From assembly GCA_002841275.1 (NCBI GenBank), contig PHET01000001.1, positions 34,464-98,463 of the forward strand: a stretch of DNA of 64,000 nt, written 5' to 3'. This document shows positions 22,001 to 25,385 of this stretch, piece by piece. The stretch comes from Actinobacteria bacterium HGW-Actinobacteria-7 (lineage in GTDB: Bacteria > Actinomycetota > Coriobacteriia > Anaerosomatales > PHET01). The notes under the pieces are model-generated. The model worked only from the letters and a program-made list of their open reading frames with translations, did not search any database and was not told the DNA's origin. A program made the position numbers and the translations under genes. Within the stretch, counting starts at the first letter, position 1. Each line of letters starts with the position of its first letter.

Positions 22001-22321
22001 ATGTCCGACATCGACCATAGCGTGCCCGAGGACGTCCTGCTCGACTTGGGGGACAGGACCAATGACGAGCTGCGTGGGCTCCTAGACGATCTCTACGCCG
22101 AGGAGCAGCGGGTCTCGTACCGCAGACGAGTGCTCCATGGCAAGATCGATATCCTTCGCTCTGAACTCGTCAGGCGGCTAAAGGGTGCTCATCAGGGCGG
22201 CGGAGACGTCATCAGCGGCCACGATGTCGAGCGTTTGATTGACATCCTGGCTAACGACTTGAGGGGCGTGTCCCGGTTCGATGTTGCAGATGATGAACCC
22301 TCAGATGAGGCCGACGAGTAG
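22001..22321 (+). CDS. RsiG-like anti-sigma/c-di-GMP-binding candidate, single motif
   Basis: 106 aa, helical and charged. Residues 35-50 read E-Q-R-V-S-Y-R-R-R-V-L-H-G-K-I-D, fitting the RsiG c-di-GMP signature E-x3-S-x2-R-x3-Q-x3-D with His in place of Gln (Glu35, Ser39, Arg42, His46, Asp50). Streptomyces RsiG carries two motif copies and sequesters sigma-WhiG when loaded with c-di-GMP; single-motif, dimerising versions are known from deep actinobacteria. The tail (about 88-106) is acidic. ATG 22001 has an excellent AGGGAGG site; TACAAT at 21967-21972 is a possible -10 without a clear -35. No whiG-like sigma gene is visible here. The function is inferred from the motif. Confidence 0.7.
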   Translation: MSDIDHSVPEDVLLDLGDRTNDELRGLLDDLYAEEQRVSYRRRVLHGKIDILRSELVRRLKGAHQGGGDVISGHDVERLIDILANDLRGVSRFDVADDEPSDEADE

Positions 22322-22352: not shown

Positions 22353-22607
22353 GTGACCAGCGTAAACGAGCGAATCAAGCTGTTCTTTGACGAGATGGCT
22401 ACTGATGTCGTTGAAGAGCGGGTGATTGAGTATGTCGTTCGCGAGGTGCACAACGGCCGCAGGTTGATGGAGGTCATCGACGATCCGTATGTACGGAATC
22501 GCCTCAGTGAGGACAAGCTTGCCAAGGTACTCGAGAACTCGGAGATCATCGAGGCGCTCGAGCAGGAGATCCGTTCATCAATGAACACAGGTGACTTCAC
22601 CTCTTAA
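22353..22607 (+). CDS. Small helical protein, unknown
   Basis: 84 aa, predicted all-helical, with no transmembrane segment and no recognised motif beyond charged heptad-like patterns ('RVIEYVVREVHNGRRLMEVI', 'RLSEDKLAKVLENSEIIEALE'). The GTG at 22353 is preceded by GGAGGAG at suitable spacing, so expression is well supported. It lies 31 nt after the RsiG-like gene and 51 nt before the FHA gene, on the same strand. A role as a partner of one of these neighbours is possible but unproven. Confidence 0.75.
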   Translation: MTSVNERIKLFFDEMATDVVEERVIEYVVREVHNGRRLMEVIDDPYVRNRLSEDKLAKVLENSEIIEALEQEIRSSMNTGDFTS

Positions 22608-22658
22608 GCGCAGCTGGTGCGGCGCCTTACAATCGCATGACTATCCGGGGTGACAGAA

Positions 22659-23114
22659 ATGCCTACGTGTCAGATATGCGGGCAATCGATCAGTGACGAC
22701 GATGTGAGTTGTCCTGCATGCGGCGCCGCCACTGAGGGACCTACCGCATCATTCAAGCCGGTGTCCTCACAGGCGCCTGTGGGATCTGTGGCGTCTGAGG
22801 ACTCGGGTGACAGTCCTGTTCTCGTGGTTCGCAAGGGCCCGCAGCTGGGCGAAAGGTTCTACTTGGAGAGCCCCCGACTGACGGTGGGGCGCGATCCCAA
22901 CAGCGACATCTTCCTCAACGACGTTACCGTGTCACGCGTTCACGCCCACCTGACCTGCACGAACAACGAAGTCTCTGTTGCAGACGCAGGCTCACTCAAC
23001 GGCACATATGTCAACGGTCAGATCGTTGATGCCGCCGTTCTCAACAGCGGCGACGTTGTGCAGATTGGGACGTTCCAGATGATATTCTTTCCGCGCAAAG
23101 AGTCCGGCGAATGA
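22659..23114 (+). CDS. Zinc-ribbon FHA-domain protein (GarA/OdhI position)
   Basis: 151 aa. The N-terminal zinc ribbon is C-x2-C...C-x2-C (Cys4, Cys7, Cys18, Cys21), followed by a Ser/Thr/Pro-rich linker (about 25-52). The C-terminal FHA domain has 'VGRDPNSDIFL' (76-86), 'VSRVHAHL' and 'SLNGTYVNG' (112-120), the residues that bind phosphothreonine. ATG 22659 is preferred (GGGGTGA upstream) over GTG 22650. Its stop overlaps the MerR gene start. The FHA-then-MerR order is that of GarA/OdhI with FtsR in mycobacteria and corynebacteria, where the FHA protein controls 2-oxoglutarate metabolism; here the zinc ribbon replaces the usual phosphorylated N-tail. Confidence 0.9.
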   Translation: MPTCQICGQSISDDDVSCPACGAATEGPTASFKPVSSQAPVGSVASEDSGDSPVLVVRKGPQLGERFYLESPRLTVGRDPNSDIFLNDVTVSRVHAHLTCTNNEVSVADAGSLNGTYVNGQIVDAAVLNSGDVVQIGTFQMIFFPRKESGE

Positions 23115-23818
23115 GCACAAGGGACTACCTCACAATCGGAGAGGTCGTCCAGAAGCTTCAGCCGTCATATCCGGATCTCTCCATTTCAAAGATCCGGTTC
23201 CTGGAAGAAGAGGGACTCATCGTCCCGGAACGCACGGCGGGCGGTTATCGGAAGTTCGCGCAAAGCGACGTCTCCCGTATCGAGATGATTCTTCGGTTGC
23301 AGCGAGATCACTTCTTCCCGCTTGCGGTCATTCGAGAGAAGCTGGCAGACGTAGACCGCGGCCGCATCCCCGTTGAGCTGCAGCGAGCCGCCACCAGCGT
23401 TGCCGAGCCATTGGCTCTCCCGAACGATGGCGAGGGACCTTTGCTCGTCGAGGATGCCCCGTCCGTGCTCAACATCCCCACCTCGTTCATCCGTGAACTC
23501 CAGGAGTTCGGCATCGTCGAGATTTCCGTTGGGGAGTTTGGCGGCCAGTTGGATCGGGCTGACCTTCCATGCGTGCATGCTGCCTGGGACCTGAGGCGCT
23601 TTGGGGTCGAGCCGCGACATCTCCGCATGTATGAGACGTTCGCCGAGCGGGAAGCGACGCTGTTCGCCCAGATTCTGATGCCAGCCTTCCGGCACAAGAC
23701 TCCAGAGTCGCGTCACAAGCTCGCTGAGACACTCACCGAGCTTGGCACTCTCACGGATAGCCTCAAGGGCAGGTTGCTGCGCAGGGCGCTGGCCCGAGCG
23801 TTCGAGGATCTCACGTAG
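23111..23818 (+). CDS. ftsR: MerR-family transcriptional regulator, FtsR-like
   Basis: 235 aa. The N-terminal winged HTH (about 5-75) reads 'TIGEVVQKLQPSYPDLSISK', 'IRFLEEEGLIVPERT' and 'GYRKFAQSDVSRI', with the extended first wing typical of the Rv1828/FtsR subgroup. A C-terminal helical dimer/effector region follows (about 120-235). FtsR activates ftsZ in corynebacteria; that target is not testable here. ATG 23111 overlaps the FHA stop (ATGA), indicating coupling. The gene order (FHA, then this) supports the subgroup call better than sequence alone. Confidence 0.85.
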   Translation: MSTRDYLTIGEVVQKLQPSYPDLSISKIRFLEEEGLIVPERTAGGYRKFAQSDVSRIEMILRLQRDHFFPLAVIREKLADVDRGRIPVELQRAATSVAEPLALPNDGEGPLLVEDAPSVLNIPTSFIRELQEFGIVEISVGEFGGQLDRADLPCVHAAWDLRRFGVEPRHLRMYETFAEREATLFAQILMPAFRHKTPESRHKLAETLTELGTLTDSLKGRLLRRALARAFEDLT

Positions 23819-23821
23819 ACG

Positions 23822-24283
23822 ATGAATAGCGGCGACAACATCGTCCACTCGGCCCCCGAAGGTAAGATTCCTGACCACCCACCACTCGATCAGATTGCCT
23901 TCGCGCACTCGAGCGAACGAGTAGCGGCAGAGATCCTCGATTACTATCGCGTTCGTTGGCTCTACGAGCCTCGCAGTTTTCCCCTCGAGTGGGACGGCTC
24001 AGGACGACCCATCGCCTATTTCACGCCAGACTTCTATCTTCCGGACTTCGACCTCTACATCGAGCTGACCACCATGAGCCAGAAGCTCGTGACGAAGAAG
24101 AACCGCAAGGTCAAGCGACTCAAGGAGGTCTATCCCGAGGTGAACATCAAGATCTTCTACCAGAAGGACTTCCGTGCGCTTCTCGCACGCTTCGGTATCG
24201 CCAGCACCGCACAAAGCCACGCCTCAGGCGGGGGATTTGTCTCCGCAAATGACTCTAAGACACCCACAAAGGACGAGTTGTGA
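23822..24283 (+). CDS. PD-(D/E)xK-like small protein, altered catalytic motif
   Basis: 153 aa. The middle looks like a PD-(D/E)xK nuclease fold: Glu32 and Glu37 in 'SSERVAAEIL', 'WLYEP' (46-50), 'FTPDFYLPDFDLYIEL' with Asp70 and Glu81, then a basic helix 'KLVTKKNRKVKRLKEVYP' and 'NIKIFYQKDF'. The expected E-x-K reads E-L-T (81-83), with the nearest Lys seven residues on, so the active site is either rearranged or dead. The last 30 residues are low-complexity. It starts 3 nt after ftsR and overlaps hpt by 4 nt. Restriction-like DNA cleavage is not implied; function unknown. Confidence 0.75.
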   Translation: MNSGDNIVHSAPEGKIPDHPPLDQIAFAHSSERVAAEILDYYRVRWLYEPRSFPLEWDGSGRPIAYFTPDFYLPDFDLYIELTTMSQKLVTKKNRKVKRLKEVYPEVNIKIFYQKDFRALLARFGIASTAQSHASGGGFVSANDSKTPTKDEL

Positions 24284-24828
24284 GCAGGACACCTCCGCTT
24301 CCTGACTTCTGCGACTCGATACTGCTGGATGAGACGACCATTCGTTCGCGGGTAGCCGAACTTGGCGCTGAGATAACAAGGGACTTCGCGGGCAAGGACG
24401 TACGACTGGTCACCGTACTGCGTGGGGGACTGTACTTCCTGTCTGATCTCAGTCGGGCCATCACCCTCGACGTAAGCCTGGATTTCCTTGCGGTCGCTCC
24501 CTACGTTCACGGAAGCGGGGGCACGGTCCGGGTGACGAAGGACTTGGACGACTCCGTACGCGGCGCCGTGATCGTCGTCGTGGAGGACGTCGTCGATACA
24601 GGACTCACGCTCAACTACGTGCTCTCATTCCTCAAGGCTCACGAACCTGAACAAGTGCTTGTCTGCGCACTGCTCGACAAACCAGCCAGGCGCATCGCTC
24701 CAGTGAAGATCACCTATCGAGGATTCGAGATGCAGGATGACTTCCTTGTCGGCTATGGCTTAGACGTCGCGGGCCGCTATAGGAACCTACCGTATCTCGC
24801 ATCTGTGCGACCCGAAGCGTTACTGTGA
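24280..24828 (+). CDS. hpt: Hypoxanthine(-guanine) phosphoribosyltransferase
   Basis: Purine salvage: hypoxanthine or guanine plus PRPP gives IMP or GMP. 182 aa. The PRPP-binding loop is 'VIVVVEDVVDTGLTL' (about 95-109); 'VTVLRGGLYFLSDL' supplies the pyrophosphate-contact loop, and 'DDFLVGYGLDVAGRYRNLPYL' is the usual C-terminal signature. GTG 24280 overlaps the preceding stop. The stop overlaps the GTG frame leading into apt, so the two salvage genes are probably co-transcribed. Confidence 0.95.
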   Translation: MSRTPPLPDFCDSILLDETTIRSRVAELGAEITRDFAGKDVRLVTVLRGGLYFLSDLSRAITLDVSLDFLAVAPYVHGSGGTVRVTKDLDDSVRGAVIVVVEDVVDTGLTLNYVLSFLKAHEPEQVLVCALLDKPARRIAPVKITYRGFEMQDDFLVGYGLDVAGRYRNLPYLASVRPEALL

Positions 24829-24866
24829 AACCGCACCAGACACCTACGCTCTCCAAGGAGGCACAC

Positions 24867-25385
24867 GTGGATCTCTCCCCATTCATCCGTGACATTCCCG
24901 ACTGGCCCAAGCCGGGCGTTGTGTTCAAGGACATCACTCCGTTGCTGGCAAGCCCTGAGGGGTTCCACGCGGCGATCGACACGCTCGCGCAGGAGTATGA
25001 AGGCACTGGCGTGACCAAGGTCATGGGGGCTGAGGCGCGCGGATTCATCTTCGGCGGCGCATTGGCCTACCGACTGGGCGCGGGATTCGTCCCAGCGCGT
25101 AAGCCAGGCAAGTTGCCGTGGAACACGTCTGCGGTCTCATATGACCTTGAGTACGGCACTGACTCGCTCGAGATCCACGAGGACGCAGTAGGCCCCGGCG
25201 ACAACGTACTGATCGTCGATGACGTACTTGCGACCGGCGGAACCGCCGCGGCCAAGGCCGAACTCGTGACCATGACCGGTGCCAAGGTGGCCGGTTTCGC
25301 ATTTCTTATCGAACTCGACTTCCTCAACGGCCGTGCCAAGCTTCCTGAGGCCGCCGCAATCACGTCGTTGATCCACGTCGACTAG
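24867..25385 (+). CDS. apt: Adenine phosphoribosyltransferase
   Basis: Salvages adenine to AMP; 172 aa, standard length. Signatures are 'IRDIPDWPKPGVVFKDITPLL' split across the N-terminus, 'GAEARGFIFGGALAYRLG', 'RKPGKLPW' and the PRPP motif 'VLIVDDVLATGGTA'. GTG 24867 is chosen because AAGGAGG sits 5 nt upstream; an earlier in-frame GTG at 24825 overlaps hpt but lacks a ribosome site. It is the last gene of the rsiG-like-to-apt run. Confidence 0.96.
   Translation: MDLSPFIRDIPDWPKPGVVFKDITPLLASPEGFHAAIDTLAQEYEGTGVTKVMGAEARGFIFGGALAYRLGAGFVPARKPGKLPWNTSAVSYDLEYGTDSLEIHEDAVGPGDNVLIVDDVLATGGTAAAKAELVTMTGAKVAGFAFLIELDFLNGRAKLPEAAAITSLIHVD

What the first reader, a model, noticed from the sequence alone, without database searches (positions are those of the whole stretch)
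22001..22321. Single-motif RsiG-like protein with a His-variant c-di-GMP signature
Residues 35-50 match E-x3-S-x2-R-x3-Q-x3-D except His for Gln. Two-motif RsiG in Streptomyces holds sigma-WhiG only when bound to c-di-GMP; single-motif forms that dimerise are known in deep actinobacteria. This one leads an operon with an FHA protein, FtsR and purine salvage genes, a setting I do not recognise for RsiG. It may define a variant switch with another sigma factor or ligand.
Basis: partly seen in the sequence, partly recalled or inferred. Interest (0 to 1): 0.75.

Follow-up and report, generated by a model that had tools for sequence, protein, structure and literature searches.

The report
Single-motif RsiG, a c-di-GMP sigma switch
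This small gene encodes an ordinary single-motif RsiG, a protein that uses the messenger c-di-GMP to lock up the sigma factor WhiG, and its less ordinary side is that in this bacterial order WhiG sites precede the type IV pilus gene and often also genes carrying a second c-di-GMP sensor, a riboswitch.

Summary
In detail: window 22001-22321 encodes a 106-residue RsiG (Pfam PF22802, 66.8 bits, cut-off 27) with E35-S39-R42-H46-D50. The proposed novelty is not. The His form is published and binds c-di-GMP (Conexibacter woesei RsiG), and His is the commoner residue in single-motif RsiGs (139 of 149 loci). The genome has a WhiG sigma factor carrying the K-x3-G-R c-di-GMP contacts, and 23 GGDEF domains. 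In 400 genomes of the class, RsiG and WhiG are both confined to this order. The 'unrecognised' setting is the standard one: single-motif rsiG precedes a GarA/OdhI-like FHA gene and ftsR in practically every locus checked; twin-motif rsiG never does. Neither source paper reports this.

Following the sigma factor: the genome's only exact intergenic WhiG-type promoter lies 66 nt before pilA, and 30 of 30 pilA genes of the order carry such a site. About 50 of 63 c-di-GMP-I riboswitches of the order also follow a WhiG-type site at a fixed distance, including the one in this genome, before a secreted GH26 protein. So c-di-GMP probably acts twice on one transcript.

Verdict: new lineage of a known switch, with unreported wiring. 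Binding and regulation are inferred, not measured.

The parts
22001..22321 (+). rsiG: single-motif RsiG, 106 aa, predicted homodimeric c-di-GMP-dependent anti-sigma factor of WhiG
   Evidence: Pfam PF22802 66.8 bits, cut-off 27; PDB relatives 6pfj, 7lq2/3/4; one copy in the genome
22103..22150 (+). codons 35-50, motif E-x3-S-x2-R-x3-H-x3-D
   Evidence: sequence; all five positions invariant in 26 orthologues; H in 139, Q in 9, F in 1 of 149 single-motif loci
22353..22607 (+). 84-aa conserved protein of unnamed family (P84) between rsiG and the FHA gene
   Evidence: no Pfam or NCBIfam match up to E 10; homologue in the same place throughout the order and in some other deep lineages, not found in the Solirubrobacterales loci
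22650..23114 (+). zinc-ribbon plus FHA protein, GarA/OdhI-like
   Evidence: PF00498 68.8 bits; best NCBIfam OdhI 118.5 bits, below its cut-off of 200
23111..23818 (+). ftsR: MerR-type regulator
   Evidence: NF050798 208.2 bits, cut-off 150
23822..24283 (+). 153-aa conserved protein, unnamed
   Evidence: no Pfam or NCBIfam match; conserved position
24280..24828 (+). hpt: hypoxanthine phosphoribosyltransferase
   Evidence: TIGR01203 170.2 bits, cut-off 150
24825..25385 (+). apt-like phosphoribosyltransferase (name from reading the translation, no family search run)
   Evidence: 68-78% identical homologue in the same neighbourhood throughout the order

Best explanation
The gene encodes a canonical single-motif RsiG. 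Two copies pair as an antiparallel coiled coil, hold a c-di-GMP dimer between their two E-S-R-H-D motifs, and in that armed state hold the sigma factor WhiG (encoded about 73 kb away on the same contig) off RNA polymerase. When c-di-GMP falls, WhiG is released and transcribes from TAAAG-N14-GCCGATAA promoters, above all that of the major type IV pilin pilA, and in most members of the order also a secreted protein gene whose leader carries a c-di-GMP-I riboswitch. Shown here by sequence: family membership, motif conservation, a WhiG partner with the c-di-GMP contacts, shared distribution, WhiG-type promoters before pilA and before riboswitches. Inferred from the published R. radiotolerans and C. 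woesei proteins: dimer, c-di-GMP binding, sequestration, direction of control.
For: Family. Motif invariant in the order. His form binds c-di-GMP in C. woesei: PMC8325347. WhiG equivalog in the genome; K37-G41-R42 equal R. radiotolerans K53/G57/R58 and are invariant in 31 of 31 WhiGs of the order, while FliA lacks the G-R pair in the alignments seen. RsiG in 65 and WhiG in 66 of 69 genomes of the order, neither over cut-off in the other 331 genomes of the class. 23 GGDEF domains. No flagellin. Exact WhiG promoter 66 nt before pilA in a pilB-pilC-pilA-pilD cluster. Order-wide exact promoter pattern 29 hits against 1 in the reversed control. 30 of 30 pilA upstream regions with 0-2 mismatches, 85-113 nt from the start codon, each at most 3% in shuffles. 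c-di-GMP-I riboswitches in 56 of 69 genomes; about 50 of 63 preceded by a WhiG-type site.
Against: No binding, dimer or transcription was measured. Two WhiG-RsiG contacts of R. radiotolerans are not strictly kept: WhiG R43 is Q27 and variable here, RsiG K60 is Q36. The sigma4 c-di-GMP contacts (T237, R239, K243) could not be mapped. The predicted model is a single-helix monomer of modest confidence (mean pLDDT 69.8) and its fold search found nothing. In the own genome the riboswitch promoter has two mismatches.
Confidence: 0.87

Rival explanations
1. His for Gln changes the ligand or tunes the protein to something other than c-di-GMP.
For: The residue does differ from the consensus built on Streptomyces.
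Against: His is the usual residue at this position in single-motif RsiG (139 of 149 loci), frequent in motif 1 of twin-motif forms, and a His form binds c-di-GMP but not c-di-AMP (PMC8325347). The guanine-reading R and D are invariant.
Confidence: 0.03
2. RsiG here restrains a sigma factor other than WhiG, for example the SigB/SigF-type or SigH-type one of this genome.
For: Six sigma-70-type genes exist in the genome; whiG is not next to rsiG.
Against: WhiG and RsiG have the same taxonomic distribution in the class, and WhiG carries the c-di-GMP contact residues. The SigB/F-type gene has its own upstream gene resembling an RsbW-type kinase (my reading, not tested).
Confidence: 0.05
3. RsiG also works with its operon neighbours: the FHA protein, FtsR and P84 form a functional module coupling the c-di-GMP/WhiG switch to cell division or central metabolism.
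For: rsiG-FHA-ftsR order is kept across Anaerosomatales, Aquicultor, Solincola and Solirubrobacterales-type genomes: 79 of 80 named loci (the other cut by its contig end) and 43 of 43 sampled single-motif loci for FHA.
Against: Conserved order may only be a slowly decaying ancestral operon; garA/odhI-ftsR is conserved without rsiG in other Actinobacteria (PMC6683498). No fusion or direct contact is known.
Confidence: 0.3

Closest known systems
RsiG of Rubrobacter radiotolerans and Conexibacter woesei (Schumacher et al. 2021, PMC8325347)
   Same: Single motif, about 100 residues, same Pfam family; C. woesei also has His; partner WhiG in the genome; WhiG-type promoters in the type IV pilus cluster, as in Rubrobacter.
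   Different: Different class (named relatives are Coriobacteriia/Anaerosomatales, a group not mentioned in that paper); longer linker after the coiled-coil helix; here one strong site at pilA, and riboswitch-bearing transcripts as further apparent targets, not described there.
Twin-motif RsiG of Streptomyces (6pfj, AmfC protein)
   Same: Family, motif, WhiG partner.
   Different: Monomer with two motifs, about 180-200 aa, not located upstream of garA-ftsR, controls sporulation.
odhI/garA-ftsR cluster of Actinobacteria (PMC6683498)
   Same: FHA gene directly followed by ftsR.
   Different: In deep lineages rsiG is the gene in front; that paper says the upstream region varies and does not mention RsiG.
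c-di-GMP-I riboswitch (RF01051)
   Same: Full-length matches well over the gathering score.
   Different: Here placed directly behind promoters of a sigma factor that is itself under c-di-GMP control.

Membership tests
RsiG (PF22802) | family profile above curated cut-off | tested here: met
   66.8 bits against 27
RsiG (PF22802) | E-x3-S-x2-R-x3-[Q/H]-x3-D c-di-GMP motif | tested here: met
   E35 S39 R42 H46 D50; invariant in 26 orthologues
[quoted passage not shown]
   106 aa, one motif, GGG after the helix at 66-68
single-motif RsiG | long motif helix able to form an antiparallel homodimer | tested here: inconclusive
   AlphaFold monomer gives a helix 21-65 (pLDDT 83-92 in the core); dimer not modelled
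RsiG | binds c-di-GMP | not testable with these tools
   needs a binding assay
RsiG | WhiG partner encoded in the same genome | tested here: met
   NF004935 372.7 bits, cut-off 343; c-di-GMP contacts K/G/R kept
RsiG | c-di-GMP-dependent sequestration of WhiG | not testable with these tools
   needs co-purification or transcription assay
WhiG regulon controlling type IV pili (Rubrobacter type) | TAAA / GCCGATAA promoters in the type IV pilus cluster | tested here: met
   own genome exact site before pilA; 30 of 30 pilA of the order

The most novel reading that the evidence does not exclude
In this order c-di-GMP controls the same transcripts twice: through RsiG it sets whether WhiG can start them, and through a c-di-GMP-I riboswitch in their leader it sets whether they are completed or translated. 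RsiG is further built into an ancient operon with a GarA-like FHA protein and the division regulator FtsR, so the switch may tie pilus production and surface remodelling to metabolism and division.
Probability: 0.55. Interest if true: 0.75.

Novelty: new member of a known kind. Interest (0 to 1): 0.5.

Why it matters
It extends the c-di-GMP/WhiG switch, with type IV pili as its target, to an order of deep-branching actinobacteria, which supports the published view that the single-motif RsiG is the ancestral state. Two things follow that can be tested at once: whether the invariant neighbourhood with garA and ftsR is functional, and whether a sigma factor and a riboswitch that sense the same messenger act as a tight off-switch (both shut by c-di-GMP) or as a band-pass (opposite signs).

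Tried and rejected
Own-genome promoter search with two mismatches: 54 hits against 44 in the reversed control, too noisy, dropped in favour of order-wide exact matches. Other own-genome matches: C26:177759 and C32:129568 lie inside genes, taken as chance. AlphaFold model and Foldseek: a lone helix, no informative match. Sigma-70 promoter scan of the rsiG operon: nothing. Rfam scan of the window: nothing. Considered and rejected: a new ligand, a new sigma partner, a novel setting.

Full report
What is there. Window 22001-22321 (+) is a 106-codon gene with a good ribosome-binding site. It is the first of seven closely spaced or overlapping genes: rsiG, an 84-aa unnamed protein, an FHA protein with a zinc ribbon, ftsR, a 153-aa unnamed protein, hpt and an apt-like gene. 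The protein is a clear RsiG by Pfam and by relation to the solved RsiGs. Its motif is E35-x3-S39-x2-R42-x3-H46-x3-D50. The genome has a single copy.

The His is not a new signature. The 2021 study of single-motif RsiGs (PMC8325347) reports that the Gln is often His in motif 1, that His can make the same stacking contact, and that the His-bearing single-motif RsiG of Conexibacter woesei binds c-di-GMP (Kd 25 uM; 1.7 uM with WhiG) but not c-di-AMP. Among the single-motif loci collected here, 139 of 149 have His, 9 Gln and 1 Phe. In the 26 aligned orthologues of this order all five motif residues are invariant.

The partner. Six sigma-70-type genes were found. One, at G000:C26:129149-129913 (-), about 31 kb beyond the right end of the window, is a WhiG equivalog (372.7 bits against 343) and aligns over nearly its whole length with S. 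venezuelae WhiG (E 4e-92). The residues with which WhiG touches c-di-GMP in R. radiotolerans (K53, G57, R58) are K37, G41, R42 here and invariant in 31 WhiGs of the order. In 400 genomes of the class, RsiG passes its cut-off in 65 of the 69 sampled genomes of this order and in none of the other 331; WhiG passes in 66 of the 69 and in none of the other 331. The exceptions are mostly incomplete assemblies. The genome has 23 GGDEF domains.

The order. Named relatives in genome contigs are Coriobacteriia, one labelled Anaerosomatales. That the order is Anaerosomatales is my inference. The RsiG paper names only Rubrobacteria and Thermoleophilia as carriers of single-motif RsiG and does not mention Coriobacteriia.

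The neighbourhood. In 80 named loci with up to 6 kb flanks, an FHA gene and ftsR follow rsiG in 79; the remaining contig ends first. These include Aquicultor, Solincola, Conexibacter and Solirubrobacter genomes. In loci sampled over the phylum outside this order (partly the same genomes), all 43 single-motif rsiG have the FHA gene next and 42 have ftsR (one contig is cut), while none of 26 twin-motif loci has either (four of the twin-motif loci were classed by length and by two profile matches per genome). The FtsR paper describes odhI/garA-ftsR as a conserved actinobacterial cluster with a variable upstream region (PMC6683498). No paper in the library holds both RsiG and FtsR. So the setting is the standard one for single-motif RsiG, apparently unreported, and was lost or left behind by the twin-motif form. 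Whether it is functional is open.

The regulon. WhiG recognises TAAA and GCCGATAA (PMC8325347). An exact search of the order with spacers of 14-16 gave 29 sites against 1 for the reversed pattern, nearly all continuing TAAAG. About ten lie just before a type IV pilin gene. In the window's own genome the exact site C14:64001-64027 sits between pilC and pilA, 66 nt before the pilin start, in a pilB-pilC-pilA-pilD cluster. I then took the 30 pilA loci fetched from the order: all 30 have the site with 0 (8), 1 (14) or 2 (8) mismatches, 85-113 nt before the start codon, and shuffled upstream regions reach the same score in at most 3% of trials. The genome has no flagellin. This repeats, in another class, what was inferred for Rubrobacter.

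A second c-di-GMP layer. Three of the exact sites were followed by an RNA that Rfam identifies as a c-di-GMP-I riboswitch. A search of the order found this riboswitch in 56 of 69 genomes. Of 63 aptamers tested, 50 have a WhiG-type site upstream at the 5% level of shuffles, nearly all at 66-84 nt before the aptamer; three of these were the discovery cases. The own-genome aptamer (C4:24433-24507, -) has TCAAGTAGGGTCTCTTCGCGGCCGATAG 81 nt upstream and precedes a secreted GH26-domain protein. In other members the controlled genes encode secreted glycosidase-like proteins or small secreted proteins ending in a HE[VI]WHIIDWRDNG[RVKS]IDW motif (family not tested). So one messenger appears to act at initiation and again in the leader. 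The sign of the riboswitch is unknown, so this may be a double lock or a band-pass. I found no paper describing it. The own PilB also has an MshEN domain; MshE, which carries this kind of domain, is a c-di-GMP-controlled pilus extension ATPase (PMC8325347 discussion; the domain assignment to c-di-GMP binding is from my own knowledge), so pilus extension may be a third point of control.

What is shown and what is inferred. Shown by computation: identity, motif, partner, distribution, synteny, promoters and riboswitch coupling. Inferred: dimerisation, binding, sequestration, direction. Structure prediction of the monomer gave only a long helix (residues 21-65) and adds little.

Verdict. The surroundings are more interesting than the residue: a fixed operon with garA-like and ftsR genes, and a WhiG regulon in which pilA and riboswitch-bearing genes stand under c-di-GMP.

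Noticed in passing
22353-22607: 84-aa protein (core EERVVEYVIREVHNGRKL..DPYVKNRL...LENPEV) without any Pfam or NCBIfam match, conserved between rsiG and the FHA gene in the order and several other deep lineages; 45 homologues collected.
   Followed up: partly
L228, L230, L233, L234, L235, L243, L333 directly after WhiG-type promoters: A structured RNA of about 130 nt with a GTCAGG...CCTGAC hairpin, an almost invariant GTGG-CGCCCCT-CCAC hairpin and a GC-rich stem-loop near its 3' end that could be a terminator; no Rfam match; a few compensatory pairs in five sequences. Possibly a WhiG-dependent small RNA. Not searched for in the own genome.
   Followed up: partly
L359 / L404 (G000:C4:24433-24507, -): c-di-GMP-I riboswitch in the own genome, before a secreted GH26 plus FlgD-Ig-like protein, with a WhiG-type site 81 nt upstream.
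   Followed up: yes
L338:3011-4690: PilB of the own genome carries an MshEN domain (77.9 bits), so pilus extension may sense c-di-GMP directly as well.
   Followed up: no
G502, G458 and G745 (phylum search): Genomes with six, five and three matches to the RsiG profile instead of one or two; possible expanded RsiG sets.
   Followed up: no
G000:C26 56464 and 129149; also G041, G054, G003, G005, G008, G017, G066: rsiG and whiG lie about 73-78 kb apart on opposite strands in many members of the order, so this long-range arrangement is kept.
   Followed up: no
L079 (G000:C1:66761-66787, -): A second relaxed WhiG-type site (TCAAG-N14-GCCGATAC) 36 nt before an ORF of unknown function in the own genome.
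   Followed up: no
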